Source of the DNA: Peribacillus sp. ACCC06369
GTDB lineage: Bacteria > Bacillota > Bacilli > Bacillales > DSM-1321
DNA length: 64,000 nucleotides
Assembly: GCF_030348945.1 (NCBI RefSeq)
Contig: NZ_JAUCEN010000002.1
Location: 310,001 to 374,000 of the forward strand
Direction of reading: 5' to 3'
Shown: piece after piece, positions 6,841-21,758 of the stretch
Position numbering within the stretch: the first letter of the stretch is position 1
How the letters are laid out: every line of letters starts with the position of its first letter
Notes under the pieces: model-generated
The model's input: the letters and a program-made list of their open reading frames with translations, nothing else
What the model was told of the DNA's origin: nothing
Database searches by the model: none
Program-made: the position numbers and the translations under genes

Positions 6841-8510
<1,670 letters not shown>

Positions 8511-8533
8511 GAACCCTTGTATATAGGGGTTTG
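8511..8533 (+). terminator. Possible groEL terminator (weak)
   Basis: AACCCT-TGTATA-TAGGGGTT hairpin just after the groEL stop, with no long T-run. A similar hairpin follows the second repeat copy at 21759-21782. Confidence 0.45.
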
Positions 8534-8553
8534 TAAGGTGGAGATTAGTGAAA

Positions 8554-8574
8554 TGCTAACTTTTTGCTAACTTT
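8554..8574 (+). repeat. Arm-type integrase site candidate, left end
   Basis: Two direct copies of TGCTAACTTT (8554-8563 and 8565-8574) lie inside the island beside the left repeat. A related pair is found just inside the right end at 21621-21641. Direct repeats of this sort flanking the core are typical binding sites for the arm-binding domain of tyrosine integrases. Confidence 0.5.
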
Positions 8575-8603
8575 CAGTTTTTGAAACAACTTTATTTCAC
8601 CAA

Positions 8604-9783
8604 TTAGAGGAGACCTTTCGTAAGTTCACTGAACTTATGGGAGGTCTTTTCTTCAATATTTTTTGTCATATGAGCGTAAATGTTCATCGTCGTGTTTATA
8701 TCTGAATGCCCTAATCTTTCTTGAATCTATTTTACGCCTGCCTCAGCTTAAATGAGAAGGGATGTATGAGTATGTCTTAAGCTGTGGGGGGTAATATGCT
8801 TGTCTACATCCAAATGCTTCATTAAACGCTGTAAACGCAATACCATTTGCTTCATAACTCTTGGATGCCCGATGTTTTCAGCAAAAATGAAATCTTGATC
8901 CTCATATACTAACCGTTGTTTCATTTTCAATTCCATCTGCTCACGCTTGTGTGCTTTGAATAAGGCGACAAGTCCATCGTCAACCATGATTGTGCGGATT
9001 GACTTTTTTGTTTTTGGGGTTAGGAGTTGATAACCTGTACGTTTGTTATTTGGATTATAGTATGTTTTGGTGATTCTTATAGTTTTCTTAGTAAGGTCCA
9101 GGTCTGTCCATTTTAATGCTAGCATTTCGCCTAAGCGCATACCGGTATATGCCAAAGTAGAAAAAACATAGATAGTCTAGATATAATCCATGTTCTTTTG
9201 TGATACGTAGAAAAGTTTTCAGTTCATTTAACTCAAGAAACTTTTCCTTAACCTCGTCTTCCTCGATATCCTCAACAGTCACATGCTTTTTTGGCATGAC
9301 AAAACCATAGGTTGGATTTGTCTTTATCAAGTCTTGCCTGATAGCATGCTTGAAGATCATGTTTCCCGTCGTATGGATACTGTCAATATAGTTATGGCTA
9401 AATTCCTTATTAAGTTCGTTTATTCGTGATTGATACATGTGCTTTGTAATCTTCTTCAAAGGTGTATTTTGCCACGAAGAGATAAGGTGTTTCAGCGCTA
9501 TCTTGCGCGCTCGAACGCTACTGATTTTTACTTGGTGTCCATAATAGCTTAACCATTCAGTAGCAGATTCTTCAAAGGTTATGTTGCTTTCCTGAAACAC
9601 TCCACCGTTAGCTATAGCATCTTCTACCTTGACCTTGTTAGCAGCAAGTTGAGCCTCTTTTTTTGTTTTAAAGCCGGATTTAGTAATTTGTCTCCGTTTG
9701 CCGGTCACTGGATCTTTTGCGACGTTAACCATGTAACCAATAGTCAAAGGTTTTCGAAAGGTACGGTTCTCGACATGTGCCAC
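8604..9783 (-). pseudogene. Tyrosine-recombinase integrase, decayed
   Basis: Phage/ICE-type integrase read on the minus strand. The N-terminal part (9783 down to about 9140) has an arm-binding domain (DPVTGKRRQITKSGFKTKKE) and the SAM-like core-binding domain. The catalytic part is recognisable as TGMRLGE (Arg I), HSLRHTH (His-x-x-Arg), GHSDINTT (His) and NIYAHMT (nucleophile Tyr). It is broken by a frameshift at about 9130-9155 and by in-frame TAA (8748-8750) and TAG (8727-8729); the frame then stays open to TAA at 8604-8606. Lying next to the left direct repeat, it is presumably the integrase that inserted the island, now inactive. Confidence 0.9.
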
Positions 9784-10066
9784 TGACTTCGTTGAGGCCT
9801 GGATAAGGGGGAATGGGGGCGTTCTTCCTATTCATTCAAAAATTCTGAGATCGACGGTTTGATATCTCTTTTCTAATCGGATCTGACTTTTCTTTTTGTT
9901 GTTGGGCTTCCCTCTTTCATAAGCCCTTTCCCCTTCCAAAAGTGAAATACGTACACTTTACTTATGTACCTGAAATCGTAAGTATTCCGGCAGGGTGAAG
10001 TTATATAAATATTCATAATTGTGGCCATGCTGTAATCATCAAACCATATATAAAGGAGCTGTAATC

Positions 10067-10261
10067 ATGGCTAAACAAGTGGTAAACATGAGAAAGAAAG
10101 AGGGCTTGGAGCTGCTGAAGAAAATAAAAGATCATTTCAGAGAAAAAAGGATATCCAGGAGCAGTGACAAAGACAAAGAAAAAAAGAGCCCGATGATCCC
10201 TCCCCCTATCAAGGGAAGCAACAAAAAGGACCTGAACAATGAACTGCACCCCAATTGTTAG
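10067..10261 (+). CDS. Small basic protein, C-terminus replaced by an insertion element
   Basis: ATG 10067 has AAGGAG 9 bases upstream and opens a Lys/Arg-rich polypeptide (MAKQVVNMRKKEGLELLKK). From base 10240 the frame runs into the end of an IS3-type element, so the last 7 residues (ELHPNC region) and the stop come from the insertion. The native C-terminus is lost. I do not recognise the family. It is probably a truncated island gene. Confidence 0.45.
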   Translation: MAKQVVNMRKKEGLELLKKIKDHFREKRISRSSDKDKEKKSPMIPPPIKGSNKKDLNNELHPNC

Positions 10262-10626
10262 ACACCATCTAACAATTGGAGGTGCAGTTTTTTTGACTAA
10301 ATATACGATGGACGAAAAATCACATGCAGTTTTAGAGTACTTGGAAGGGAAAAAATCCTATTAATCTATTGCACAAGAAAAAAATGTAGGTTTATCCCCT
10401 CTGAAAAGATGGGTCGCTTGCTATCTTGAACATGGGATAGAAGGACTTGCTTCATCCTATACAAATTACACTCTCCCCTTTAAACTAGAGGTACTTAAAT
10501 ATATCCATTACTACAATCATCAACGAATCAAGGTGAAATTAAAAGGCATGAGCCCGGTAGATTACCGGGTTCATGCCCTCAAGGCTGCCTAATTAAATAA
10601 AGTGTCTACTTTTTGGGTTCACTTCA
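10240..10626 (+). mobile_element. Internally deleted IS3-family derivative (MITE-like)
   Basis: 387 bases that keep both ends of the IS found at 34879-36311 (TGAACTGCACCCCAATTGTT at the left, GGGTTCACTTCA at the right) but join the start of orfA directly to the last about 120 bases of orfB. The join falls at ATAT, present in both parent segments, suggesting a microhomology deletion. The orfA part also has an in-frame TAA. It cannot encode a transposase but could be mobilised in trans. No clear target-site duplication is visible. Confidence 0.8.
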
Positions 10627-10679
10627 ATTTCAGCTCTTTTTATCTATTTCTTCAAATAACGGGTGCTTTACTTAATTAC

Positions 10680-11250
10680 CAGGAGCTGATCAATTAGCTA
10701 GGAAATCTGTCGGTGCAAAACAAGCAATTGAAGCGTATAAATTTCATTTGGAACAATTATTAGAGGAGTATGATCTCGCAGTCTTACAACTCGAAAGAGT
10801 GGACCAAGAGGTTAAGGATGTATTAAAACAAATACCTTTTGCCAAGCTGCTTGCCATTAAGGGAATTAGTGAAATTTCTTTAGCCGGAATATTAGGTGAA
10901 GCAGGAGTCTAAGTGGTTTTTCACACGGTAATTCTTTACTTCGGCACGCTGGGTTGCATCTGGCTGAAGCAAGCTCTGGAAAGTGGAAAGGCCAAATTGT
11001 CATCTCTAAGCGAGGGAGATTCAGGCTAAGGCGTTTCCTTTACTTAGCCACCATGAGCCTTGTGATGAATAACACGGAATTTCAGGCCATTCACTCCCAT
11101 AATGTTAAGGTGAAAAAAATGAAGAAAATGAAATCGATTATGAAATTGGTAGGTAAGCTAACCAGGATATTTATTGGAATAGCACGCAGAAACGAGTCTT
11201 ATTGTGCAGATAAAGTTCAACCTATAACTGAACTGGTTGCGTTGTTTTAA
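10680..11250 (+). pseudogene. IS110-family transposase fragment
   Basis: Only the C-terminal half is present. It contains KLLAIKGISEISLAGILGEAG, the helix-hairpin-helix start of the Transposase_20 (IS116/IS110/IS902) domain, followed after a single-base frameshift near 10910 by HAGLHLAEASSGKWKGQIVI and SKRGRFRLRRFLYLATMS. The N-terminal RuvC-like DEDD domain is missing, cut near the deleted IS3 derivative. Confidence 0.85.
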
Positions 11251-12067
11251 AGGGGAGTTTTTAAATTGGGTTCTCAAAGGGAACCTTCAAAAACTAATTT
11301 TCATAGACTTTTTCTTTTTACGAATGTTGGCTTATTCGTAGGGTTTCAAATATGTACGGAGTACCAGATTTCTTGAACAAAAGGGCACTGACCCATCAGG
11401 TTAGCATAACTGGCCTCCACCCCTTGGATAGGCATGACGAAGGAATGGTAGGGCAATTGACCCGTTGAGACATGGGAGGGAAAGCCTCCAGGGGCGACGT
11501 GGAGTGTACATTATATGGTAAAATGTGGAGTCTAGTGCAACTCCTTTATTTCACTATGTCTTCACGAAATCTTCATATCCTGAAATCACTCCATTTAACC
11601 GTGAACTTAAATTCAGGGGTGATGAAATCCTGCGATTAAGCGAGTATTTGTGAGAAAATCGTATTAAACTGAGGGAGTTTAAGAAGCTTTCTCAATATTC
11701 ACGGTTTCCTTAAGTGGTTTCTTACAACTGCAATAATAGTGAAACACAATGAGAAAGGAGCATATGTTTTTACTCCTGAAGTATTAGTTGAAATCACTAA
11801 TTCAATTTACTATCCCAACCAAACCAAAATAGTAAACTACCATTTAAATAAACTTCTTAACTCCGGAAAATGATAATACCAAAGAAGACCCACGGGCGTT
11901 AATTGAATAACGAAAAAGCTGTCTTGAATGACAGCTCCTAATTTCAAAAGTGCTGTGGGAGTGATGCGTTTGGGCGATACCTTCCAAAAGAAAGACATTG
12001 CCAGGCTCAAAAGGTTAAAACCCCATTTAAACAAAAATATTTATATCCCATAGTCCTCTTTTTGATG
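11251..12067. other. Gene-free debris between IS110 remnant and repeat gene
   Basis: The first about 280 bases follow the IS110 fragment and are GC-richer, with possible structure (GGTTC...GAACC near 11270 and a CCTCCACCCC/GGGAGG-rich stretch at 11410-11510). They may be the IS non-coding end. From about 11600 to 11872 two short frames look coding (for instance KGAYVFTPEVLVEI) but are broken by stops and a frameshift. I could not name them. The rest shows nothing I can support. Confidence 0.4.
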
Positions 12068-12889
12068 CTATCTTTTTTTCGGCCCTTTTTTCCCTTTGGC
12101 ACCTTTGCCCTGTTTCACCTCACCGGTTCCCGCTGATTCTTCCCCTTCATGAGAACCTTTATGGCCTTTAGGTTCCGAGAGCTCCTGGGTTTGCACTGAC
12201 TCGGTGGAGGCTGTGCCATCTTTCAATCCTTTTTTCCCTTTGACACCTTTGCCCTGTTTCACCTCACCGGTTCCCGCTGGTTCTTCCCCTTCATGAGAAC
12301 CTTTATGGCCTTTAGGTTCCGAGAGCTCCTGGGTCTGCACTGACTCGGTGGAGGCTGTGCCATCTTTCGATCCTTTTTTCCCCTTGGCACCTTTGTCCTG
12401 TTTCACCTCACCGGTTCCCGTTGATTCTCCTCCTTCATGAGGATCTTTATGGCCTTTAGGTTCCGAGAGCTCCTGGGTTTGCACTGACTCGGTGGAGGCT
12501 GTACTATCTTTCGGTCCTTTTTTCCCTTTGGCACCTTTGCCCTGTTTCACCTCACCGGTTCCCGCTGGTTCTTCCCCTTCATGAGAACCTTTATGGCCTT
12601 TAGGTTCCGAGAGCTCCTGGGTCTGCACTGACTCGGTGGAGGCTGTGCCATCTTTCGATCCTTTTTTTCCCTTGGCACCTTTACCCTGTTTCACCTCACC
12701 GGTTCCCGCTGATTCTCCTCCTTCATGAGGACCTTTATGGCCTTTAGGTTCCGAGAGCTCCTGGGTTTGCACTGACTTGGTGGAGGGCGTATCATCTTTC
12801 GATCCTTTTTTCCCTTTGGTGCCTTTGCCTTCTATTACATCTTGAGTTGCACGCACTGGCTGTTCTTTTTTATTAGATTTTTTCTTCAT
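12068..12889 (-). CDS. CotG-like Lys/Gly-rich tandem-repeat protein
   Basis: 273 residues: a 20-residue basic head, five tandem copies of a 48-residue unit (144 bp each) and a 13-residue stub of a sixth (GKGAKGKKGPKKR). Each unit contains GKGAKGKKG, then STESVQTQELSEPKGHKG, then an acidic HEGEE segment. There is no signal peptide or membrane segment. Composition and modular repeats resemble spore-coat proteins such as CotG; sequence identity to CotG is not claimed. A minus-strand CATAAGTTA element lies 35 bases upstream, matching the sigma-K -10 consensus. The next genes (homospermidine synthase, CotB-like proteins) support a coat role by inference. Repeat number is likely to vary between strains. 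Confidence 0.8.
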   Translation of the reverse strand: MKKKSNKKEQPVRATQDVIEGKGTKGKKGSKDDTPSTKSVQTQELSEPKGHKGPHEGGESAGTGEVKQGKGAKGKKGSKDGTASTESVQTQELSEPKGHKGSHEGEEPAGTGEVKQGKGAKGKKGPKDSTASTESVQTQELSEPKGHKDPHEGGESTGTGEVKQDKGAKGKKGSKDGTASTESVQTQELSEPKGHKGSHEGEEPAGTGEVKQGKGVKGKKGLKDGTASTESVQTQELSEPKGHKGSHEGEESAGTGEVKQGKGAKGKKGPKKR

Positions 12890-12923
12890 TTTTTCACCAT
12901 CTTATTAAATTTTTTTTCTTGTT

Positions 12924-12932
12924 TAACTTATG
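12924..12932 (-). promoter_or_regulatory. Sigma-K-like -10 element before the repeat gene
   Basis: Minus-strand CATAAGTTA fits CATAnnnTA. The same nonamer stands before the hss gene (14310-14318), and the bases further upstream are also alike (an ATTTCG-containing stretch). No convincing -35 AC was found at the usual spacing. Confidence 0.45.
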
Positions 12933-13010
12933 AAAAAAATCCGAAATTTGATTAGACTCCAATACATTTATTTTTGCTAAGATTTTTGATCGATATCTAA
13001 AAGAGTAATT

Positions 13011-14285
13011 TCAGTCGCGAAACTTTCTCATCCTATTTAGCAAACAACCATCTGTATTTTCATTTTCCCCTGTCACAAAATCCGTCATGTAATAAGTCAA
13101 ATATTGAGCATAGTGATTGTTTGTTGTTAACAATAACTCGTCCACATAATACACACCGTTAGGTATTTGGTCTAGCAAAAGTACGGTTAATGAAGCATAG
13201 ATACCGCACGCCACCTGAAAATAGGTCGCATTGGTTTTATATTCTGAAAACACCACATCATTGCTTAATATATTGTACATATATCGCTCCTTGTCTTTAA
13301 ACACAAGAAGCACCCCCACCAAATCTTCCCCTTTCAATGGCGCCTCAAGCGGATCAAGAACCTTCATTTCATGGTTCCATAATTCATCAACGTCATCCAG
13401 ATGGGAACGGATTAACTCGGTGGTATGTTCATTTACTTTATATAAAAAGCCACCTTCCATATCATACAACTGACATAACGTATATACTTCTTCGTGAGGC
13501 ATCAAACAACCATAAAACTGGTTCCCGCCTAAATTCACTTTGAATTCAAGGTTATAAACTTGTTCGTATAAGAAGAGTGGTGTGTGGTGTTGGATAAGCA
13601 TCGGGTAGCTCATAATCGCTTCATCAAGGAAACATTCTGGTGACCAGGTTGTGTAGATGACGTTCTCTTTTGCCAATTTCTTATCCTTAAAAAAAGAAGT
13701 GTCTTGTTCAACAATATAGCAGGCAATTGGTGAATCTTGAGCATATTTGTTGAGAAGCTCTATCGCCATCCATTGAACGACTCCTGGATTCATTCCGGAG
13801 CATACGATAGCGGACGTATTGGTGAAACTTTTTTTGGATTTTTCAAAGTATCTGATTCTCTCAATCAAAGGGAATCCCGCATACAAATCTTCATTTTCGT
13901 CAATCATAGTGTTCTCCAAGGCAGAATTGACATATTTCACACCGAATTCATTACAGCATTTTAGCATTTCCACCGTGTCAGTATAGGAAAGATCAACCAC
14001 AATATCTGTTTTTGTGCTCTCCAGATGTTTTTTAAATGTCATCGTATCCATTAAATCAAATTCGTGTAGCAAAAGCTTATTGACTAAATTAGGGAAAAGA
14101 TTATGATAATACTCTAGTTCTTTTTGTTTCACATCGATTAAGTGTATTTGTTCATTAAAAATGGTATCGTGAATCGGGTCTTTTTTATCGAGTATCGATT
14201 TATTTAATATAGCGAGTAATGACTTTGCCACACCGCCAGCGCTTCCCAGAATGGAGATCACTGTATTTTTGGCCTTCATATTCAT
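13011..14285 (-). CDS. hss: Homospermidine synthase-like enzyme (saccharopine dehydrogenase fold)
   Basis: About 424 residues. Similar in order and motif to bacterial homospermidine synthase, which makes sym-homospermidine from putrescine with NAD+. Marks are a nucleotide-binding loop ISILGSAGGVAKS at the N-terminus, SGMNPGVVQWMA (family CGANPGMVSW), EQDTS, TWSPECFLDEA, YGCLMPHEEV, a DDVDELWNHEMKVLDP region, NATYFQVACGIYASL, and a C-terminal YYVDELL. Start ATG 14285 or 14279; the longer frame upstream has no family similarity and overlaps the promoter element. Divergent from the SpeD-SpeE fusion and upstream of the repeat protein. Homospermidine versus carboxynorspermidine-type activity cannot be told from sequence alone. 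Confidence 0.82.
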   Translation of the reverse strand: MNMKAKNTVISILGSAGGVAKSLLAILNKSILDKKDPIHDTIFNEQIHLIDVKQKELEYYHNLFPNLVNKLLLHEFDLMDTMTFKKHLESTKTDIVVDLSYTDTVEMLKCCNEFGVKYVNSALENTMIDENEDLYAGFPLIERIRYFEKSKKSFTNTSAIVCSGMNPGVVQWMAIELLNKYAQDSPIACYIVEQDTSFFKDKKLAKENVIYTTWSPECFLDEAIMSYPMLIQHHTPLFLYEQVYNLEFKVNLGGNQFYGCLMPHEEVYTLCQLYDMEGGFLYKVNEHTTELIRSHLDDVDELWNHEMKVLDPLEAPLKGEDLVGVLLVFKDKERYMYNILSNDVVFSEYKTNATYFQVACGIYASLTVLLLDQIPNGVYYVDELLLTTNNHYAQYLTYYMTDFVTGENENTDGCLLNRMRKFRD

Positions 14286-14309
14286 ATCTCGTCCAAATCC
14301 TTTTTTATA

Positions 14310-14318
14310 TAACTTATG
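14310..14318 (-). promoter_or_regulatory. Sigma-K-like -10 element before hss
   Basis: Minus-strand CATAAGTTA, 25 bases from the start codon, identical to the element at 12924-12932. Suggests mother-cell expression late in sporulation; the -35 is not clear. Confidence 0.45.
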
Positions 14319-14397
14319 TAAAACCAATACGAAATGATATGGACGGGTTCCACAACACTCCAAAGTAAACAGAAATTATTTTATGGAAAAGGTACAA

Positions 14398-14424
14398 ACC
14401 ATTTATCTTATTGAACATAAAATA
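14398..14424 (+). promoter_or_regulatory. Sigma-K-like promoter of the SpeD-SpeE fusion gene
   Basis: AC (14398-14399), 16 bases, then CATAAAATA (14416-14424): a full fit to the sigma-K consensus AC-N16-CATAnnnTA, about 90 bases before the TTG start. Confidence 0.55.
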
Positions 14425-14514
14425 GTTATACAAGCATGGTAAGGTAACAGTTCCTCTCTATCGTAAACTGTATAACTTCCATAATTGCTATTTACTTAAA
14501 AGGATGTGGAATAG

Positions 14515-15828
14515 TTGGATTCAAATGGACAGCATTTCATTATAGATGCTAAGGAATGCCAGGTGGAAATTCTAAATGATGCGAAGTTGTTGGAAAAATT
14601 ATTAACCAAAGCGGTGTCTGATTTAGGAATGGAGATTTTAAATACTCATTTCCATTCTTTTTTGCCTCACGGGGTAACGGGTGCCATCATTCTCTCAACT
14701 TCGCATTTTTCGATTCATACATGGCCGGAACACCGATATGCAGCTTTAGATTTATATACGTGCGGAAGTCAGGAATTATGGCCAGTATTAGAAGAGCTTC
14801 TTAATGAAATGAAAGCGGGTTCCGCTTTTGTTTATGAACTTTCACGCGGACATGAATCAAAAAACAAACCTGCCATAAAAGATCTTATTTTCACATATGA
14901 TGGCAGTAAAAAGAAAGATAGTGAAAGGACTGTAGAATTACGGGATGACCGCGGAAATGCATATGATAGTATACAGTTAAAAGAACTTGTGGAAGGACAA
15001 CATAATATTCTCTATCATGGATCCAGTCAATTTCAAGATATTACATTAGTTGAGGCCAATGACCTGCGTTTATATTTAGATCAAGAGTTACAGTTTTCTT
15101 CATTGGATGAAAGGCATTATCATGAAGCGTTAGTATTCCCTGCGATGGAGATGGCTTCTGACCATGAACGGGTTCTCATATTAGGAGGTGGAGATGGACT
15201 TGCTTTACGTGAAGTTCTTAAATATCCCAACGTAAAACATGTCGATCTTGTTGATATTGATCCTCAGGTTATTGGGCTTGCAAAGACAAATCCAAAATTA
15301 ATAACTCAAAATAATTGTTCTTTACTGGACGAAAGGGTAAATATTCATTTTGAAGATGCAAAGAAATTTATTTTAAGGGAAATGCAGCCCTACAACGTAA
15401 TAATTATTGATTTTCCAGATCCCGTTGACCCAGTCATTAGCTCATTATATACAATTGAATTGTTCAGTCAAACAGCAAAAATATTATCGAAACAAGGTGC
15501 GTTAGTTTGTCAGTCTAATTCACCAGAAGATACACCAACAGTATTTTGGAGTATTGGTAAAACAATTAATATGGCCGGTCTTAATACACTTGAATACAAT
15601 GTTATAGTCCCCTCTTTCGGCTTATGGGGATTTCATTTAGCATCACATTTCAAGCTTCCAAGAATTATTCCGAGTATTTCTGTCCAACATCAAGCTCTAA
15701 CTTCAGACATGTCGAATTTGTTTACTATTCCTCCGTCAATTAAGGAGGCACGGGAAAAAGCAGTTATGAATAGCCTCAAAAATTTAAAATTACACAAGTT
15801 GTATAAAAACGAAATAGAAAAATGGTGA
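14515..15828 (+). CDS. SpeD-SpeE fusion: AdoMet-decarboxylase-like pyruvoyl domain plus aminopropyltransferase
   Basis: 437 residues in two domains. Residues 1-115 are a bacterial SpeD: STSHFSIHTWPEHRYAALDL places Ser63, His68 and Cys83 exactly where the Thermotoga-type enzyme has its pyruvoyl serine, processing histidine and proton donor. The residue before Ser63 is Thr, not the usual Glu, and position 55 is Thr, not Ser. Residues about 125-400 are a spermidine-synthase-like domain: YHEALVF, VLILGGGDGLALREVL, VDLVDIDP, FEDAKKF and DFPDP. It starts at TTG 14515 with AAGGATGTGG upstream; no in-frame ATG precedes the SpeD motif. Fusion of the two and the altered cleavage site make the substrate uncertain: AdoMet, ornithine or arginine are possible. 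Divergent from hss, so one intergenic region serves both polyamine genes. Confidence 0.87.
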   Translation: MDSNGQHFIIDAKECQVEILNDAKLLEKLLTKAVSDLGMEILNTHFHSFLPHGVTGAIILSTSHFSIHTWPEHRYAALDLYTCGSQELWPVLEELLNEMKAGSAFVYELSRGHESKNKPAIKDLIFTYDGSKKKDSERTVELRDDRGNAYDSIQLKELVEGQHNILYHGSSQFQDITLVEANDLRLYLDQELQFSSLDERHYHEALVFPAMEMASDHERVLILGGGDGLALREVLKYPNVKHVDLVDIDPQVIGLAKTNPKLITQNNCSLLDERVNIHFEDAKKFILREMQPYNVIIIDFPDPVDPVISSLYTIELFSQTAKILSKQGALVCQSNSPEDTPTVFWSIGKTINMAGLNTLEYNVIVPSFGLWGFHLASHFKLPRIIPSISVQHQALTSDMSNLFTIPPSIKEAREKAVMNSLKNLKLHKLYKNEIEKW

Positions 15829-15887
15829 CCAAACATCATGTTTTTTAGAGACCATAAAAAACACTTTTTAGTTTTGCTGCTTAAAAT

Positions 15888-15918
15888 GACTCCGGTAATG
15901 CTCCGGGGTCTTTTTTTT
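15888..15918 (+). terminator. Terminator of the SpeD-SpeE gene
   Basis: GACTCCGG-TAATG-CTCCGGGGTC-type stem followed by eight T, 60 bases after the stop. Confidence 0.85.
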
Positions 15919-16334
15919 GTAACTTTCTGGGTACAATCGTTTTAATAATCCGCTAAACAGCGATCCACTCTTCATTTAAGTTCATTAAAGTTGGACTATC
16001 CATTACTCCAATTCATCTGTTAGATGCTGAGCGAATTTCTCACATGGATTTAGCGCCATCTCTTTACCCCTGCTATTCAATATCCTTCAGCTATTTTAAT
16101 AGGCGTTCTGTGCTTCGAATAATATACTTTTTTTAAACTACCCATTATTCTGGTCAAAGAGTTCATTCAGTAATTTCAGTCATTTAACTTCAGGAGATTC
16201 TAAAGGTTAGTGCATATACACATTTTTGTGAATTTCAGTCTTATTGATAGAAGATGGACACTTAACACGACACAATGTCATTCAGTGACACATATACATA
16301 CAGGGTAAATGATTATATAGGAAGGGGCAACATT
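15919..16334. other. Intergenic stretch before the first CotB-like gene
   Basis: About 415 AT-rich bases without a supportable gene. The region 16255-16310 has CATATACAT and CATACAGGG, which only partly resemble sporulation sigma -10 elements, so I do not call a promoter. Confidence 0.4.
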
Positions 16335-16889
16335 ATGAATAACGAATGGTTAACTAATTTGGTTGGGAAAGTTCTAAAGGTAGATAGAGGAGGGCCGGAA
16401 TCTCGGACAGGATTATTATTAGGCATATACGATGATCACATATCGATTTTAACTGAGCAAGAAGGTGTTATCTACTATAAAACCGACCATATCAAAAGTA
16501 TTACCCAGAATGTAAAGAAGGGGTTCCAATTTCAACTGGAAATCCCCGAAGATTTTACTTTTAAAACAGCTGCAACTTTTAAAGGCTTACTAGATGACCT
16601 CAGAAATCAATGGGTAAATATTAACCGAGGCGGTCCCGAGAAGCTTGAAGGCGTACTTCATGATATTAATGATGAATTCGTATCGTTATTACTAAACGAA
16701 GAAGTTATTCGCCTGGCAATGTTCCATATCCGCAGCATCAGTTACGGGGCAAGAGTTGAGAAACCAAAAGAAGATGAAAAATCAGAAAATAATAAAGACG
16801 ATGGAAAATCAGAAAATAATAAAGATAATAAAGAAGATGGAAATGCGAAAAAAAATGAAGATAATAAAGCAGAAAAAAAAGAAAAATAG
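16335..16889 (+). CDS. CotB-like spore coat protein with two RGGPE modules
   Basis: 184 residues. Two modules of the CotB type each begin with a glycine-rich turn: KVDRGGPESRTGLLLGIYDD at residues 16-35 and NINRGGPEKLEGVLHD about 75 residues later. Each is followed by a beta-rich segment ending in HIKSI or HIRSI. The C-terminus is a Lys/Glu/Asn-rich tail (KSENNKD repeats). CotB is an outer-coat component of Bacillus spores. ATG 16335 has AAGGGG 8 bases upstream; the frame upstream of it is not conserved-looking. First of three related genes in the island. B. subtilis CotB has three such modules and a Ser/Arg/Lys tail, so this is a shorter relative. Confidence 0.8.
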   Translation: MNNEWLTNLVGKVLKVDRGGPESRTGLLLGIYDDHISILTEQEGVIYYKTDHIKSITQNVKKGFQFQLEIPEDFTFKTAATFKGLLDDLRNQWVNINRGGPEKLEGVLHDINDEFVSLLLNEEVIRLAMFHIRSISYGARVEKPKEDEKSENNKDDGKSENNKDNKEDGNAKKNEDNKAEKKEK

Positions 16890-16908
16890 TATATCCCACA
16901 AATGATGT

Positions 16909-16930
16909 GTCGCTTCAGGGCAGAAGCGAC
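16909..16930 (+). other. Hairpin between the two CotB-like genes
   Basis: GTCGCTTC-AGGGCA-GAAGCGAC, an 8-bp perfect stem with no T-run, so not a terminator. It sits 28 bases before the next start codon and might affect mRNA processing or translation. Confidence 0.6.
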
Positions 16931-16958
16931 CATCCAATTAAGAAGGGGGACTCATCAG

Positions 16959-18623
16959 ATGAAAAAACAAAATTTTCACGAGGCACTTAATTCATTGATA
17001 GGTTTTAATATCAGTATTATTTCCGATGATAAAACTGTTCATAATGGGGTGGTACTTGATGTGAAAAGCGACTTTATTGTCATTCAAATGAATCCAAATA
17101 AACAATGTTATTTTAACTTAAATCAGGTTTATGCCTTATCAAAAAACACCAAAGAATTTCAGGGTCAAATACTTGACCACGAACCAATACAGAAACAAAG
17201 TTTTACAGAATTAGTAAATGAACTCAAAGATCATTGGGTGACAGTAAACAGAGATAATAATCTATCCTTTGACGGATTTTTAAGTACCGTAACTAATAAT
17301 TATATCGTTTTATTAAATAACGATAAACAACTTTATGTACAATTTTCAAATATACTCTATATTTTCAAAGGGATAGATAATAAGGAATCATCAGAGAACA
17401 AACAACAGAAAAATAAGGACGAAAAAACTGAAAATAAACAGTCAGAGGCAGATCAATTTAAGGAAAGTGATTCCGTGTTGAAGGAAGACGCTGAAGTTAA
17501 TTCCAAAGGGAAGGAAGAGCCGGTTGAACAGAAACAAGAACAGGACATTTTAACTATTGGAAAAGAAGAACCAGCTTCTGCCCATCCGGAAGTATTATCT
17601 GACGTGAAAGAAGAACCGACTGTTCAATCTACAGTAAATGAAGTGGACAAAGATCAATCCAATGTAAAAGAAAGTACGGATAAATATAAGAATCAAAAAT
17701 CCCCTGAAAAAAAGAAAAAAGAAAGTAAGAAGGAAAAACCTTCAGAAACTAATACTGAAATAAGTGCCCATCCGGAAGTATTATCTGACGTGAAAGAAGA
17801 ACCGACCGTTCAATCTACAGTAAATGAAGTGGACAAAGATCAATCCAATGTAAAAGAAAGTACGGATAAATATAAGAAACAAAAATCCCCTGAAAAAAAG
17901 AAAAAAGAAAGTAAGAAGGAAAAACCTTCAGAAACTAATACTGAAATAAGTGCCCATCCGGAAGTTTTATCTGACGTGAAAGAAGAACCGACCGTTCAAT
18001 CTACAGTAAATGAAGTGGACGAAGATCAATCCAATGTAAAAGAAAGTACGGATAAATATAAGAAACAAAAATCCCCTGAAAAAAAGAAAAAAGAAAGTAA
18101 GAAGGAAAAACCTTCAGAAACTAATACCGAAATAAGTGCCCATCCGGAAGTTTTATCTGACATGAAAGAAGAACCGACTGTTCAATCTACAGTAAATGAA
18201 GTGGACGAAGATCAATCCAATGTAAAAGAAAGTACGGATAAATATAAGAAACAAAAATCCCCTAAAAAAAAGAAAAAAGAAAGTAAGAAGGAAAAACCTA
18301 TAGAAACTAATACTGAAATAAGTGCCCATCCGGAAGTTTTATCTAACGTGAAAGAAGAACCGACTGTTCAATCTACAGTAAATGAAGTGAACAAAGATCA
18401 ATTCAATGTAAAGAAAAGTACGGATAAATATAAGAAACAAAAATCCCCGAAAAAAAAGAAAAAAGAAAGTAAGAAGGAAAAACCTATAGAAACTAATAAA
18501 AAAGATATACAAGAGGCAATCCAAGAAAACCTGACTAAAGAATTTAGGAACTCAGGCCCTCAAGAAATGAACGAACAATCCGCTAAGAAAAAAAAAATAA
18601 AAAAAAAGGAAACTGATAGATAA
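16959..18623 (+). CDS. CotB-like protein with five 62-residue Lys/Glu-rich repeats
   Basis: 554 residues. Residues 1-150 hold two CotB-type beta modules (SLIGFNISIISDDKTVHNG and LKDHWVTVNRDNNLSFDGF) in which the RGGPE turn has been lost. From about residue 207 come five tandem 62-residue repeats (186 bp, 17577-18506), each with AHPEVLSDVKEEPTVQST, STDKYKKQKSP and KKKKESKKEKP. A Lys-rich end follows. ATG 16959 has AAGGGGGA upstream. The Lys blocks resemble CotB/CotG tails that are phosphorylated or cross-linked in the coat; that function is inferred. The DNA repeats are nearly identical, so copy number is probably unstable. Confidence 0.8.
   Translation: MKKQNFHEALNSLIGFNISIISDDKTVHNGVVLDVKSDFIVIQMNPNKQCYFNLNQVYALSKNTKEFQGQILDHEPIQKQSFTELVNELKDHWVTVNRDNNLSFDGFLSTVTNNYIVLLNNDKQLYVQFSNILYIFKGIDNKESSENKQQKNKDEKTENKQSEADQFKESDSVLKEDAEVNSKGKEEPVEQKQEQDILTIGKEEPASAHPEVLSDVKEEPTVQSTVNEVDKDQSNVKESTDKYKNQKSPEKKKKESKKEKPSETNTEISAHPEVLSDVKEEPTVQSTVNEVDKDQSNVKESTDKYKKQKSPEKKKKESKKEKPSETNTEISAHPEVLSDVKEEPTVQSTVNEVDEDQSNVKESTDKYKKQKSPEKKKKESKKEKPSETNTEISAHPEVLSDMKEEPTVQSTVNEVDEDQSNVKESTDKYKKQKSPKKKKKESKKEKPIETNTEISAHPEVLSNVKEEPTVQSTVNEVNKDQFNVKKSTDKYKKQKSPKKKKKESKKEKPIETNKKDIQEAIQENLTKEFRNSGPQEMNEQSAKKKKIKKKETDR
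17577..18506 (+). repeat. Five 186-bp tandem repeats within the CotB-like gene
   Basis: Units begin at about 17577, 17763, 17949, 18135 and 18321, exactly 186 bases apart, and differ at only a few positions. All keep the reading frame. Confidence 0.95.
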
Positions 18624-18639
18624 GAAATGTTACGAATTA

Positions 18640-18780
18640 ATGAAGTCCACTGAAAAAATGTATACAGAAAACGGAAATCAAAAAAACGAATATTATTCAT
18701 TGATGAAATTTGCTGAAAGAATGCATGGGAAATTGAAGGCAAAACGGTTAAGTCTTAATATACAATTCAAGGCTAATTGA
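18640..18780 (+). CDS. Possible 46-residue basic ORF
   Basis: ATG 18640 to TGA 18780 gives MKSTEKMYTENGNQKNEYYS followed by a Lys-rich, aromatic stretch. No good ribosome-binding site is visible. It could be a small coat-associated peptide or a frame-shifted tail of the preceding gene. Kept at low confidence because the next gene starts right after it. Confidence 0.3.
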   Translation: MKSTEKMYTENGNQKNEYYSLMKFAERMHGKLKAKRLSLNIQFKAN

Positions 18781-18794
18781 AAGGAGGACATGGA

Positions 18795-18926
18795 ATGATG
18801 ATTTTGTTTTTTTCTGTAATTGGGGGAGTCTTCTATTCTTTTTTTGTAAAACCTCAAAATCAAACCACTCCTGATACCGTAAAAATTACACCATCCAAAA
18901 ACAAGGCGGCGGAGGTAAATGCTTAG
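18795..18926 (+). CDS. 43-residue single-span membrane peptide coupled to the permease
   Basis: ATG 18795 follows AAAGGAGG by 7 bases, an excellent ribosome-binding site. The peptide has one hydrophobic span (MMILFFSVIGGVFYSFFV) and a hydrophilic tail with KPQNQTTPDTVKITPSKNK. Its stop overlaps the permease ATG by 8 bases (ATGCTTAG), indicating translational coupling. It may be a small subunit of, or leader for, the permease. No family recognised. Confidence 0.65.
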   Translation: MMILFFSVIGGVFYSFFVKPQNQTTPDTVKITPSKNKAAEVNA

Positions 18927-20274
18927 TTCACAAATTGTCTTGATGTCAATAACTTTTACTTTAACAATTATTCTCATGTTATGGAGACCATTTGGGATTA
19001 ATGAAACTATACCTACTACAATAGGGGCCTTGACTGTATTAGTTGCAGGCATTGTTCCTTGGATGGATGTTTTAAATATATTTGATATTATCAGTGGCGC
19101 TTCTTTAACCATATTATCCACCATAATGATGTCTATTGTACTTGAGAGCATTGGTTTTTTTAGGTGGATTGCTTTAAATATCATCATCCGGTCTAAGGGT
19201 TCAGGGGTTAGATTATTCGTTTATACTAATCTCCTATGTTTTTTCATGACAATGTTTTTCAATAACGATGGAAGTATCCTTATCACAACACCTATCATTA
19301 TTCACATTGTAACGTTACTAAAGATTAAACCTCACCAAAAAATCCCCTTTCTAATCTCAGGAGCTCTAATTGCAACGGCAGCGAGTGCCCCAATAGCAGT
19401 AAGCAATATTTCCAATTTGATTGCACTAAAAATTGTAGGACTGAGCCTTAATAGTTATATCAATATGATGTTTGTTCCTTCAATGATAGGGATTTTAACA
19501 ATCGGGTTATTACTTTATCTATATTTTAAGAAGGACCTTCCAAGGAAAATTCCCAGTGTACCTGTAAAATGGGATAAAACCTTTTCACGCTATGTGCAAA
19601 CTCATCCACTCGATGTTAAACAACAATCCGAAGATAATGATTGGGTGTTGTTTAAAATGAGTTTTGCAATCGTCATTTTAACTCGGGCGAGCTTCTTCGC
19701 ACTTACACCTTTTGGGGTTCCCTTGGAATTGATCGGTATGGTGGGAGCGTTCCTTTTGATATTACTGAGATGGTATAAAACCAAAACTGGTCTTAGCGAT
19801 ATTGTAAAGAAAACACCCTGGCATGTTCTTTTATTTGCTTTCAATATGTACGTGCTGGTATATGGTTTGAAGAATGTTGGCTTGAATGATTATTTAGTCA
19901 GCAATTTAAAACCCTTAATTATGGACAGTCCATTCAACGCTACCATGATCATGGGCATATTATTAACTATCCTATCCAATTTATTTAATAATCTTCCTGC
20001 AGTTATGATAGGGACTTTGTCGATAACAGAGATGGGATTGGATCCTCACCTTGTACAAATTGCTTATCTTGCTAACGTGATTGGAAGCGATATAGGTGCT
20101 TTGTTAACGCCTGTTGGTACGCTGGCTACATTAATTTGGATGTATATATTGAAGAAACACTCCATCAATATCTCCTGGGGAAAGTATCTTAAAGTTACCT
20201 TTTTGATAATTCCTATAGGGTTAATCGTAAGTTTAATCTCGCTGTATTTTTGGACCAATTGGTTATTAAAGTAG
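18919..20274 (+). CDS. ArsB/NhaD-superfamily permease
   Basis: 451 residues with about 11-12 membrane spans. The pattern FNNDGSILITTPIIIHIV in the first half and LFNNLPAVMIGTL in the second matches the paired NxD/NxP hairpins of the ArsB / ion-transporter superfamily, as does the GSDIGALLTPVGTLATLIW region. ArsB proteins export arsenite, but no ArsA, ArsR or ArsC is nearby, so the substrate may be another anion. It is read with three CotB-like genes and a coupled micro-ORF, which argues for a sporulation role by context only. GGAGG stands just before ATG 18919. Confidence 0.75.
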   Translation: MLSSQIVLMSITFTLTIILMLWRPFGINETIPTTIGALTVLVAGIVPWMDVLNIFDIISGASLTILSTIMMSIVLESIGFFRWIALNIIIRSKGSGVRLFVYTNLLCFFMTMFFNNDGSILITTPIIIHIVTLLKIKPHQKIPFLISGALIATAASAPIAVSNISNLIALKIVGLSLNSYINMMFVPSMIGILTIGLLLYLYFKKDLPRKIPSVPVKWDKTFSRYVQTHPLDVKQQSEDNDWVLFKMSFAIVILTRASFFALTPFGVPLELIGMVGAFLLILLRWYKTKTGLSDIVKKTPWHVLLFAFNMYVLVYGLKNVGLNDYLVSNLKPLIMDSPFNATMIMGILLTILSNLFNNLPAVMIGTLSITEMGLDPHLVQIAYLANVIGSDIGALLTPVGTLATLIWMYILKKHSINISWGKYLKVTFLIIPIGLIVSLISLYFWTNWLLK

Positions 20275-20289
20275 GAAGTAGGGGTGATT

Positions 20290-20958
20290 ATGAATAAAAT
20301 CTTACAAAATCTCAGAGGAAAAACAATTAAAATAGAAATTTCCGGAAAAAAATTTTTTTTCGGTACACTGGTTGATACTGGTGTTGATGTAGTGGTTATC
20401 TTTAATGGACAGGATTTTGTGTATCTTCCAATAATTCATATTCAAAATTGCAAAGTAAATACTACGGAAAACGAGGAGATTTCCCTTCCTGTAGACTCAC
20501 CTGGAATTGAAGCTGAGGAAGAATTATCACTAAGAAAAACTCTTTTATCCGCGAAAGGGATGTTCACGGAAATATACGTAACTGGTAACCAGCCTTTACA
20601 TGGTTATATAACAAGGGTGATGAATAATTACTTTGAATTCTATTCACCAGTTTATAAGACTATGTATATACCTTTAATTCATTTAAAGTGGATTATCCCA
20701 TACACAGACAATCAAACTCCTTATGGTTTAAGTAACAAGGATCTTCCTGTACATCCATCAAAACTTTCAATGGCAAGATCCTTTGACGTACAATTGGAAA
20801 AACTGGTCGGTAGCTTAATTATTTTAAATATAGGGGAAAATTCCAATTTAATTGGACAAATTAATAAGTTAGAAGATAATTTTGTTGAACTTATTACGGC
20901 AAGGGAGGAACCTGTATATTTAAATCTTCATCATATTAAAACAGTTCACCTACCCTGA
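20290..20958 (+). CDS. Third CotB-like protein, three modules, no repeat tail
   Basis: 222 residues. Three consecutive CotB-type beta modules are visible: LRGKTIKIEISGKKFFFGTL, then KGMFTEIYVTGNQPLHGYI, then LVGSLIILNIGENSNLIGQI, each ending in an LxHI/LIHLK element. The RGGPE turn is degenerate in all three and the charged C-terminal tail is absent. ATG 20290 has AGTAGGGG upstream and lies 15 bases after the permease stop, so it is in the same operon. Probably a coat scaffold protein by family resemblance. Confidence 0.7.
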   Translation: MNKILQNLRGKTIKIEISGKKFFFGTLVDTGVDVVVIFNGQDFVYLPIIHIQNCKVNTTENEEISLPVDSPGIEAEEELSLRKTLLSAKGMFTEIYVTGNQPLHGYITRVMNNYFEFYSPVYKTMYIPLIHLKWIIPYTDNQTPYGLSNKDLPVHPSKLSMARSFDVQLEKLVGSLIILNIGENSNLIGQINKLEDNFVELITAREEPVYLNLHHIKTVHLP

Positions 20959-20961
20959 ATT

Positions 20962-20986
20962 AAAGGCAGCAAATTTGCTGCCTTTT
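20962..20986 (+). terminator. Terminator of the coat operon
   Basis: AAAGGCAGC-AAAT-TTGCTGCCTTTT hairpin just after the stop of the third CotB-like gene. Confidence 0.85.
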
Positions 20987-21158
20987 AGTATTCCTTCTCT
21001 AAAGCGTAAACATACTTTACAGAACCCACTTCTTACATATCTATTAGTTCTATTAGTGAAAAAATAGGGGATTTGTTCAATCGGCTTTACTTTTCCCTCA
21101 TTTGATTATGGCTGGTGGCCTTGTCCATGGAGTGTTCGGAATCAAGGGAGTTTTTGTA

Positions 21159-21302
21159 CTAAAGTAACGGGTGCGTTAACTGAAGATTGGAGCTGTCTTT
21201 AAGGCAGATTTTCCCTCCATTAACACCATCACTCCCACAAGCTGATACAGCAATTACAAGCAATAAAACAAGACAGCCACTAAAAACCTTTTTTAAATTC
21301 AT
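21159..21302 (-). CDS. Short lipoprotein, probably truncated
   Basis: 47 residues from ATG 21302 (AAAGGAG 9 bases upstream) to TAG. It has a classical lipoprotein signal: NLKK head, hydrophobic core FSGCLVLLLVIAV and lipobox VSAC followed by GSDG. After the signal only about 25 residues remain, so the mature part is probably cut short. Family unknown. Confidence 0.5.
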   Translation of the reverse strand: MNLKKVFSGCLVLLLVIAVSACGSDGVNGGKICLKDSSNLQLTHPLL

Positions 21303-21510
21303 TTAACAAACTCCTTTTGTATTTATTGATCATATAAAAACCGCACCTTTTACAGTTTTTTTTTGAAGACACAATTCCGTATAAAATCATGCCTTCATCA
21401 CCATCAATAGTGAAGGCTTCAGTTAAAACACCATCTTTTTCTTCTAACTTCTTTATGTGTTTCTTTAATAACTCAGCTTGAATTGGATTTAAGGGTTTTT
21501 TCATTTTCAT
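21280..21510 (-). CDS. Small hypothetical protein
   Basis: 76 residues with a basic head (MKMKKPLNPIQAELLKKHIK), an acidic middle (IDGDEGMILYGIV) and a CKRC motif near the end. GGAGC stands upstream. Its end overlaps the start of the lipoprotein gene by 23 bases, so the two may be co-expressed, or one call may be wrong. No family recognised. Confidence 0.45.
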   Translation of the reverse strand: MKMKKPLNPIQAELLKKHIKKLEEKDGVLTEAFTIDGDEGMILYGIVSSKKNCKRCGFYMINKYKRSLLNEFKKGF

Positions 21511-21620
21511 GATAGTCGCTCCTTCTGATATTAATAGGTTAAGTTCTAAAATTGCTCTCTAAAAGTGTAAAGGGATTGCCTTTTTTATTGGATTTTTTAC
21601 GTATAGTCACCTAATAGGTT

Positions 21621-21641
21621 TGCTAACTTCTTTTTAACTTT
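21621..21641 (+). repeat. Arm-type integrase site candidate, right end
   Basis: TGCTAACTTC followed by TTTTAACTT resembles the left-end double repeat at 8554-8574 over about 20 positions, in the same orientation and also inside the island. Confidence 0.45.
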
Positions 21642-21730
21642 TCATTCCAACGTATACAATCTCCATTCTTAAAATCCAAGTTACACAAAGGTTTTGCCAG
21701 CCCATAAAAGAGCAAAAAACCACCTCTTAG

Positions 21731-21758
21731 ATGGGCGGCATGATGTAATCATCGCCTA
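21731..21758 (+). repeat. attR-like copy of the groEL 3' end
   Basis: Exact 28-base copy of 8483-8510 including the last six groEL codons and stop. It has no open frame of its own upstream. Marks the right boundary of the island; similarity continues to about 21782. Confidence 0.85.

What the first reader, a model, noticed from the sequence alone, without database searches (positions are those of the whole stretch)
12068..20958. Mobile spore-coat plus polyamine module
Inside the island stand a CotG-like repeat protein, a homospermidine synthase, a SpeD-SpeE fusion, three CotB-like proteins and an ArsB-type permease, with sigma-K-like elements before at least three genes. Co-location of polyamine-making enzymes with coat proteins suggests that polyamines are made in the mother cell and used in coat assembly or cross-linking (polyamines and Lys-rich chains are good substrates of spore transglutaminase). 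I know of no described system with this combination.
Basis: partly seen in the sequence, partly recalled or inferred. Interest (0 to 1): 0.85.

Follow-up and report, generated by a model that had tools for sequence, protein, structure and literature searches.

The report
Mobile spore-coat, permease and polyamine cassette
A mobile island in a soil Bacillus relative carries spore-coat proteins with charge-balanced tails, a membrane permease that nearly always accompanies them in related genomes, and enzymes that make polyamines, a set that resembles the parts diatoms use to build glass shells and may silicify the spore coat.

Summary
Between 12068 and 20958, inside a 13 kb integrase island at the groEL 3' end, stand a Lys-rich repeat protein (not demonstrably CotG), an enzyme of the homospermidine-synthase/carboxyspermidine-dehydrogenase fold, a SpeD-SpeE fusion, two CotB-like proteins with charge-balanced tails, an ArsB-superfamily permease and a third, tail-less CotB-like protein of three small barrels.

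The core is the permease plus the tail-less CotB: across 397 genomes of the order 104 have both, 5 only the CotB, 4 only the permease. The permease forms a deep clade apart from ArsR-linked ArsB. Other genomes' loci recurrently hold CotH, CotZ and CotO coat genes; the pair also occurs on plasmids and in other orders. SpeDE joins it, in rearranged order, in 11 of 29 genomes (0.15 expected) and sigma-K-like sites precede 17 of 37 SpeD/SpeE-family genes. HSS joins rarely.

I read it as a spore-coat biosilicification cassette: silicate permease, silaffin-like CotBs and long-chain polyamine synthesis. Coat module: about 0.9. Silica: about 0.5. No silica or polyamine was measured, and no Bacillus cereus-group genome could be identified for comparison.

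The parts
8483..8510 (.). left attachment repeat of the island, at the groEL 3' end (exact core; imperfect similarity runs to about 8560)
   Evidence: alignment; control: score 92 vs at most 39 in 2000 other windows and 35 in 1000 reverse-strand windows
8748..9783 (-). tyrosine integrase in two overlapping ORF fragments (8748-9155 and 9088-9783)
   Evidence: PF00589 E 2e-15; PF14657 E 1e-13 and PF14659
12068..12889 (-).
   Evidence: 144-nt unit, 5.2 copies; no family; composition
13011..14285 (-). HSS-like NAD(P)-dependent polyamine enzyme, 424 aa from the likely ATG (ORF extends to 14363)
   Evidence: PDB profile: HSS 1e-6; model pLDDT 91.8; Foldseek: HSS and carboxyspermidine dehydrogenase, TM 0.66-0.77
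14394..14424 (+). sigma-K-like promoter element upstream of SpeDE (ACAAACC ... CATAAAATA; core 14416-14424, -99 from the TTG start)
   Evidence: sequence; similar element in relatives
14515..15828 (+). SpeD-SpeE fusion (S-adenosylmethionine decarboxylase and aminopropyltransferase), 437 aa
   Evidence: SpeD and SpeE landmark motifs kept
16335..16889 (+). CotBa: CotB-like protein with Sm-like units and a charge-balanced tail (14 K/R, 15 D/E in 48 aa); ORF opens at 16275, the start matching relative L023 is 16335
16959..18623 (+). CotBb: CotB-like protein with a 393-aa tail that includes 62-aa repeats and holds 88 K/R and 88 D/E; ORF opens at 16902
18795..18926 (+). unannotated 43-aa small membrane-like protein overlapping the permease start by 8 nt
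   Evidence: alike, judged by eye, in 14 of 18 loci on this side of the permease tree and 0 of 24 of the other clade
18919..20274 (+). coat-linked permease of the ArsB/CitMHS superfamily, 451 aa
20290..20958 (+). CotBc: tail-less CotB-like protein of three helix-plus-five-strand barrels, 222 aa; ORF opens at 20284
21731..21758 (.). right attachment repeat (copy of the groEL 3' end)

Best explanation
This is a mobile spore-coat cassette whose likely job is to build a mineralised, most likely silicified, outer coat in the mother cell. Shown by sequence: a permease family and a tail-less triple-barrel CotB protein travel together across the order and into other orders; they are joined by CotB proteins whose tails are rich in charged and polar residues (in the window with nearly equal numbers of positive and negative ones), by CotH/CotZ/CotO coat genes in other genomes, and in a minority of genomes by a SpeD-SpeE fusion or an HSS-like enzyme, the polyamine genes with sigma-K-like sites. 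Inferred: late in sporulation the SpeD domain makes decarboxylated SAM and the SpeE domain adds aminopropyl groups repeatedly, the HSS-like enzyme adds aminobutyl groups, giving long-chain polyamines; the permease concentrates a small inorganic acid, best guess silicic acid, in the mother cell; polyamines and the charge-balanced CotB tails (and the Lys-rich repeat protein) condense it on a scaffold made by the CotB barrels, as CotB1 and long-chain polyamines do on Bacillus cereus spores and silaffins and long-chain polyamines do in diatoms.
For: Permease and CotBc: 104 genomes with both, 5 and 4 with one, 284 with neither of 397, p 9e-84; present in 46 genera each, 44 shared, p 1e-30; permease within 1 kb of a listed CotBc in 86 of 125 copies; in other orders of the class 20 of 33 CotBc loci hold it; the pair also sits on three Priestia plasmids. 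Permease clade separated from three ArsR-linked ArsB by a 100/100 branch. CotB tails: 28 of 43 have at least 70% D,E,K,R,S,N,Q,G,T in the last 60 residues against 7 of 567 neighbouring genes; window tails 14 K/R to 15 D/E and 88 to 88. Coat genes nearby: CotH in 16, CotZ in 7, CotO in 6 of 96 module loci (1.77 Mb), none in 35 control loci (0.67 Mb) (Pfam). SpeDE: CotBc within 10 kb in 11 of 29 genomes (expected 0.15), in rearranged gene order at 31-64% protein identity; sigma-K-like core 17 of 37 against 97 of 866. HSS beside SpeD/SpeE in G000, G142, G289 and G010; HSS 1.5 kb from the permease in L198, with CotH between. Literature passages: CotB1's zwitterionic C terminus is essential for B. 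cereus biosilicification (PMC11818168); long-chain polyamines were found in silicified B. cereus spores (PMC12206195); diatoms carry SpeD-aminopropyltransferase fusions that potentially make them (PMC12029483); the silicon effluxer Lsi2 groups with prokaryotic ArsB (PMC5100055).
Against: No silica, polyamine or transport was measured. The permease's substrate and direction are unknown; plant Lsi2 exports, whereas a coat needs import into the mother cell. No genome of the B. cereus group, the proven silicifier, could be identified among the genomes searched (0 of 110 over the cut-off of a SpeE model that I recall to be B. cereus-derived), so the permease is not tied to a known silicifying species. 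Pieces of the CotB1 C-terminal peptide were not found in the 25 loci checked. Three in four genomes with CotBc lack this SpeDE type (27 of 108 have it), so polyamine enzymes are optional. HSS is near CotBc in only 2 of 27 genomes of the order. No sigma-K-like core stands before CotBa, CotBb, permease or CotBc in the window, nor in excess in relatives for CotBa or CotBc. CotH, CotZ and CotO are not in the window's island; this genome's two CotH genes lie elsewhere. The p-values ignore relatedness. Many cationic peptides precipitate silica (recalled), so charge alone is weak evidence.
Confidence: 0.5

Rival explanations
1. Coat cross-linking: polyamines made in the mother cell are used by spore transglutaminase to cross-link Lys-rich coat proteins; the permease is incidental.
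For: Tgl is present in this genome; Lys-rich repeat proteins and polyamine enzymes share the island.
Against: The permease is the most faithful CotBc partner of those tested and gets no role; most CotBc genomes lack this SpeDE type (81 of 108); the window tails carry as many acidic as basic residues.
Confidence: 0.15
2. A coat-linked uptake or efflux system for another small anion or metalloid (phosphate, borate, arsenite, citrate-metal), with the CotB proteins binding that ion; silica is not involved.
For: The permease belongs to the ArsB/CitMHS superfamily, whose members carry several anions (recalled); its substrate cannot be read from sequence.
Against: By eye, no ArsR or ArsC stands by the permeases of the clade in the gene lists, unlike the three ArsB loci L151, L152 and L162; the charge-balanced CotB tails and the polyamine link both point to silica.
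Confidence: 0.2
3. Polyamines serve the spore in another way (stabilising DNA, membranes or germination) and the SpeDE/HSS genes ride with coat genes only because both are spore genes.
For: SpeDE is not within 10 kb of CotBc in 18 of 29 genomes and HSS in 25 of 27, while SpeDE keeps sigma-K-like cores also where it stands apart (L024, L027, L063).
Against: Repeated close linkage in rearranged order in diverged lineages exceeds chance by far (relatedness ignored).
Confidence: 0.1
4. Chance cargo of a mobile island with no common function.
For: The island has an integrase and attachment repeats.
Against: Same partners in other families and orders, in other gene order.
Confidence: 0.03

Closest known systems
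CotB1-CotB2 of Bacillus cereus (spore-coat biosilicification; Motomura 2016, not held, known here from PMC11818168 passages and recall)
   Same: CotB-like coat proteins, one with a zwitterionic tail, and (recalled) a tail-less partner; L025 and L026 tails end in an Arg-rich stretch after an Asn/acidic stretch
   Different: Here a permease, a small membrane protein and polyamine enzymes are linked; pieces of the CotB1 tag peptide were not found in 25 loci; no B. cereus gene was compared
Diatom silica machinery: silaffins, long-chain polyamines, SpeD-aminopropyltransferase fusions, Lsi2-like transporter
   Same: The same list of parts by kind: charge-balanced Lys-rich proteins, a SpeD-SpeE fusion, an ArsB-superfamily transporter
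   Different: No homology shown for the structural proteins; the setting is a spore coat in a cytoplasm, not a membrane vesicle; no N-methyltransferase domain on the fusion
ArsB arsenite/antimonite efflux pumps
   Same: Superfamily (PF02040 E 3e-75; PDB 10tp 1e-65)
   Different: About 35% identity to plasmid pumps, deep separate clade, no ArsR/ArsC seen, bound to CotBc; below NCBIfam ArsB cut-offs
Bacterial homospermidine synthase and carboxyspermidine dehydrogenase
   Same: Same two-domain NAD(P) fold
   Different: 13-18% identity in the structural matches; its own family of 53-71% identity within Bacillales
Bacterial AdoMetDC-aminopropyltransferase fusions shown to act (PMC12803844 passages)
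   Same: Same two domains in one protein; landmark motifs kept here
   Different: Those tested come from other phyla and were tested for AdoMetDC and spermine synthase activity; product here unknown

Membership tests
ArsB arsenite efflux pump | NCBIfam curated score | tested here: not met
   342 of 457, 303 of 415 and 280 of 760 bits
ArsB arsenite efflux pump | Operon with ArsR or ArsC | tested here: not met
   Read by eye: absent beside the window permease and among up to three genes either side of L153-L161; ArsR and ArsC beside L151 and L152, annotated ArsR beside L162
ArsB arsenite efflux pump | Transport of As(III) | not testable with these tools
   needs an assay
Lsi2-like silicon transporter | ArsB/CitMHS superfamily | tested here: met
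   PF02040 and PF03600; Lsi2 groups with prokaryotic ArsB according to PMC5100055
Lsi2-like silicon transporter | Clade with plant Lsi2 | not tested
   no Lsi2 sequence was on hand
Lsi2-like silicon transporter | Silicic acid transport | not testable with these tools
   needs an assay
B. cereus CotB1-type silica protein | CotB-like domain with zwitterionic C terminus | tested here: met
   tails 14 K/R: 15 D/E and 88: 88; charged/polar tails in 28 of 43 relatives against 7 of 567 genes
B. cereus CotB1-type silica protein | Sequence relation to CotB1 itself | tested here: inconclusive
   CotB1 sequence not held; pieces of its C-terminal peptide not seen in 25 loci
B. cereus CotB1-type silica protein | Required for coat silica | not testable with these tools
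   needs spores
CotG | Match to a coat family or to the CotG repeat | tested here: not met
   0 families; 48-aa repeat; the CotG repeat length is recalled and no CotG sequence was compared
Homospermidine synthase | Sequence profile and fold | tested here: inconclusive
   by profile HSS 1e-6, 8h4z (carboxyspermidine dehydrogenase) 0.009; folds about equally close
Homospermidine synthase | Catalytic Trp and Glu of B. viridis HSS | not tested
   no residue-level structural alignment was made
SpeD-SpeE fusion | Both domains in one frame with catalytic landmarks | tested here: met
   STSHFSIHTWPE, DLYTCG, GGGDG, IDFPDP kept
Long-chain polyamine synthase | Product longer than spermine | not testable with these tools
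   needs an assay
Integrative island | Integrase and flanking attachment repeats | tested here: met
   the integrase is in two fragments

The most novel reading that the evidence does not exclude
Spore-forming bacteria own a dedicated, mobile biosilica toolkit that parallels the diatom one part by part: a silicate permease with a small coupled membrane protein, silaffin-like coat proteins that CotH may phosphorylate, and enzymes for long-chain polyamines, assembled in the mother cell under sigma-K and passed on by islands and plasmids.
Probability: 0.42. Interest if true: 0.93.

Novelty: new variant of a known kind. Interest (0 to 1): 0.8.

Why it matters
How bacteria take up silicon and deposit it on spores, and which genes make the long-chain polyamines found in that silica, are to my knowledge open questions. 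This cassette names candidate genes for each step and makes them testable by gene removal. A permease annotated as an arsenic transporter (as on the Priestia plasmids) that nearly always keeps company with a coat-type protein would also correct many genome annotations, and a mobile coat cassette would show that spore armour is exchanged between species.

Tried and rejected
Sequence-family naming of the repeat protein failed. A protein-pattern scan of named genomes found one remote hit only. Search for a B. cereus-group genome by the SpeE model NF002435 gave none over the cut-off (0 of 110), and the genus with up to four CotBc copies (f23 g26) seems a relative only: its FabI is similar but, by eye, only about 80% identical to the best solved FabI chains (that these are from the B. 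cereus group is recalled). A protein search with its CotBa gave six hits, none named by species. Foldseek of CotBc gave only weak Tudor/KOW-type barrel matches (TM mostly 0.2-0.3), read as a small-barrel fold and nothing more. Sigma-E-like patterns were at or near background (1 of 19 HSS, 27 of 1256 other genes). I rejected chance cargo (conserved elsewhere) and ordinary arsenic resistance (clade, context). The first att control wrongly included the right repeat itself; it was redone without it. In one search the CotBc list was cut at 150 rows (108 genomes); one search used the full table of 109. Near-identical upstream stretches were removed before the sigma-K counts, L122 was dropped as a copy of L072, and plasmid loci L125 and L126 were not in that count; its query sequences for CotH, CotZ and CotO came from module loci, which count by construction, and several loci are from one genus or genome. 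Paper searches for this combination; none of the listings described it. Most subscription papers are not held.
Full report
WHAT IS THERE. The window lies in a 5.6 Mb genome most likely of Peribacillus: its nearest named CotBc relatives are Peribacillus sp. and P. frigoritolerans at 95%, and family members match contigs of P. acanthi and P. alkalitolerans by length and protein name. The region 8483-21758 is an integrative island: a copy of the groEL 3' end recurs at 21731 (score 92 against at most 39 in 2000 other windows), a tyrosine integrase in two fragments lies at 8748-9783, and G+C is 36.5% against 41.8% and 39.6% in the flanks. The genome has further SpeD matches (3895353 and 2772128 on contig 2) and SpeE matches (5287027, 2029696 and a short one at 2684780), so the island set seems extra to the housekeeping pathway.

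THE POLYAMINE PAIR. SpeDE (14515-15828) has both domains and the landmark motifs of each. Fusions of this type occur in many Bacillales. The neighbouring divergent gene is HSS-like: a 16-member alignment (53-71% identity to the window) matches solved HSS at 1e-6 and entry 8h4z, named saccharopine dehydrogenase there and carboxyspermidine dehydrogenase, at 0.009. Its model (pLDDT 91.8) is about equally close to both. The exact product is therefore open. HSS stands within 1 kb of SpeD/SpeE genes in three of the 27 genomes of the order that have it (G000, G142, G289) and in G010 (L029), in different arrangements.

THE COTB PROTEINS. CotBa and CotBb have Sm-like units followed by tails with 14 K/R to 15 D/E and 88 K/R to 88 D/E. 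Among 43 non-redundant relatives, 28 have at least 70% of D, E, K, R, S, N, Q, G, T in the last 60 residues, against 7 of 567 other genes of the same loci. CotBc has no such tail (medians equal to those of other genes) and is predicted as three helix-plus-five-strand barrels (pLDDT 85.4).

THE PERMEASE. It matches ArsB and CitMHS models below all NCBIfam ArsB cut-offs. In a tree of 40 proteins, 37 permeases of this kind are separated from three ArsR-linked ArsB by a 100/100 branch; the plasmid arsenic pumps listed share about 35% identity. It is bound to CotBc: 104 genomes with both, 5 with CotBc only, 4 with the permease only, 284 with neither of 397 (p 9e-84); by genus 46 each, 44 shared, 87 of 135 with neither (p 1e-30). 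These p-values ignore relatedness; but in the window's genus the nine sampled genomes with CotBc are the nine with the permease and the four without are the same four. Of the four permease-only genomes, G411 is an ArsR/ArsC-linked ArsB and G044 has a CotB-like gene next door (L151, L154). 86 of 125 permease copies lie within 1 kb of a listed CotBc. In other orders of the class 20 of 33 CotBc loci from 28 genomes hold the permease; 13 do not. The pair occurs on three Priestia megaterium plasmids, one 9.5 kb with a MobQ relaxase, one beside sporulation genes, and a second copy in the window genome lies beside another integrase remnant (L085, read by eye). A 43-58 aa membrane-like protein overlaps or abuts the permease start in 14 of 18 loci on the window's side of the tree (some placed by identity rather than in the tree; L154 branches at its base), and was not seen in 24 of the other clade (motif judged by eye).

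COAT CONTEXT. In 96 module loci (CotBc and/or permease; 1.77 Mb) CotH kinase genes occur in 16, CotZ in 7 and CotO in 6; in 35 control loci (SpeDE, HSS or ArsB loci without the pair; 0.67 Mb) none of the three occurs (Pfam). The queries came from module loci. In L128 CotBa and CotBc sit between CotZ/CotO and fabI; in L133 and L146 they are next to CotZ and CotO. None of these coat genes is in the window's island; this genome's two CotH genes lie elsewhere. That CotH phosphorylates CotB and CotG is recalled, not taken from a call. Some tails are Gly/Lys/Ser/Asn/Arg repeats (L193, L195).

LINK OF POLYAMINES TO THE COAT MODULE. SpeDE-type genes (E at most 1e-60) occur in 29 of 397 genomes; 27 have CotBc and 27 the permease. 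CotBc is within 10 kb in 11 of 29 against 0.15 expected, P about 1e-18 (relatedness ignored; the window and its close relatives G008 and G029 are among the 11), the permease in 7 of 29. Gene order differs. Against this, SpeDE is not within 10 kb in 18 of 29, and 81 of 108 CotBc genomes lack it. HSS is within 10 kb of CotBc in 2 of 27 genomes of the order, G000 and G239, and shares the permease-CotBc-CotH locus in L198 of another order. So the permease-CotB module is the core and polyamine synthesis is an optional, recurrent addition.

TIMING. A sigma-K-like -10 core (recalled consensus CATAnnnTA) lies within 150 nt of 17 of 37 non-redundant SpeD/SpeE-family genes against 97 of 866 other genes (p 3e-7), 4 of 11 HSS (p 0.03), 8 of 36 permeases (p 0.05), 4 of 33 CotBa and 1 of 19 CotBc (both at background). 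In the window the SpeDE element is ACAAACC...CATAAAATA, alike in L027 and L059. This supports mother-cell timing for the polyamine genes only.

MECHANISM. Shown: the gene set, its conservation, the coat context, the tails. Inferred: the substrate of the permease, the chain length of the amines, the mineral. The silica reading rests on four points of outside knowledge: CotB1's zwitterionic tail is essential for B. cereus spore silica (passage, PMC11818168); long-chain polyamines are embedded in that silica (passages, PMC12206195); diatom genomes carry SpeD-aminopropyltransferase fusions that may make such amines (passages, PMC12029483); the silicon effluxer Lsi2 is an ArsB relative (passages, PMC5100055 and PMC8550040). 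The two key primary papers (Motomura 2016; Ikeda 2024) are not held. Weak points: direction of transport, no B. cereus genome for comparison, no measurement.

VERDICT. Real, conserved and not described in the listings of the paper searches I ran. I hold the coat-module claim at about 0.9 and the silica claim at about 0.5.

Noticed in passing
window 18795-18926: A 43-aa membrane-like protein overlaps the permease start by 8 nt; counterparts, judged by eye, in 14 of 18 loci on this side of the permease tree and 0 of 24 of the other, and a 70-aa one in L182 of another order.
   Followed up: partly
L131, L134, L138, L141, L142 (and L031): A SET-domain gene stands next to or near the HSS-like gene in 5 of the 19 HSS loci listed (Pfam confirmed for L131, L138 and L142; the rest by similarity), and one lies in SpeD/SpeE locus L031. 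Diatom polyamine fusions are said in some cases to carry a histone-methyltransferase domain that methylates the amines (PMC12029483).
   Followed up: partly
L198 5149-7086: HSS-like enzyme with a 220-aa N-terminal extension that holds APAEKAL-type repeats, about 240 bp from a CotH gene and in the same locus as permease and CotBc.
   Followed up: partly
L085 6891-8039 (window genome C2 near 155-157 kb): The second CotBc-permease pair of this genome lies beside what looks, by eye, like another tyrosine-integrase remnant downstream of ribosomal protein genes.
   Followed up: no
G068 contig 1, 55286-57100 and several entries: Proteins of 590-700 aa with an aminopropyltransferase domain matching the query; in G068 two matches to that domain lie in one 675-aa frame.
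   Followed up: no
L033 (G029): A decayed copy of the cassette: SpeDE reduced to a fragment, permease in pieces, while CotBa, CotBb and CotBc look intact.
   Followed up: no
window 10954-11250: IS110-type transposase remnant inside the island (PF02371).
   Followed up: no
L023 17224-18639: Collagen-repeat protein, like those of spore surfaces, 1.5 kb from CotBc in a close relative.
   Followed up: no
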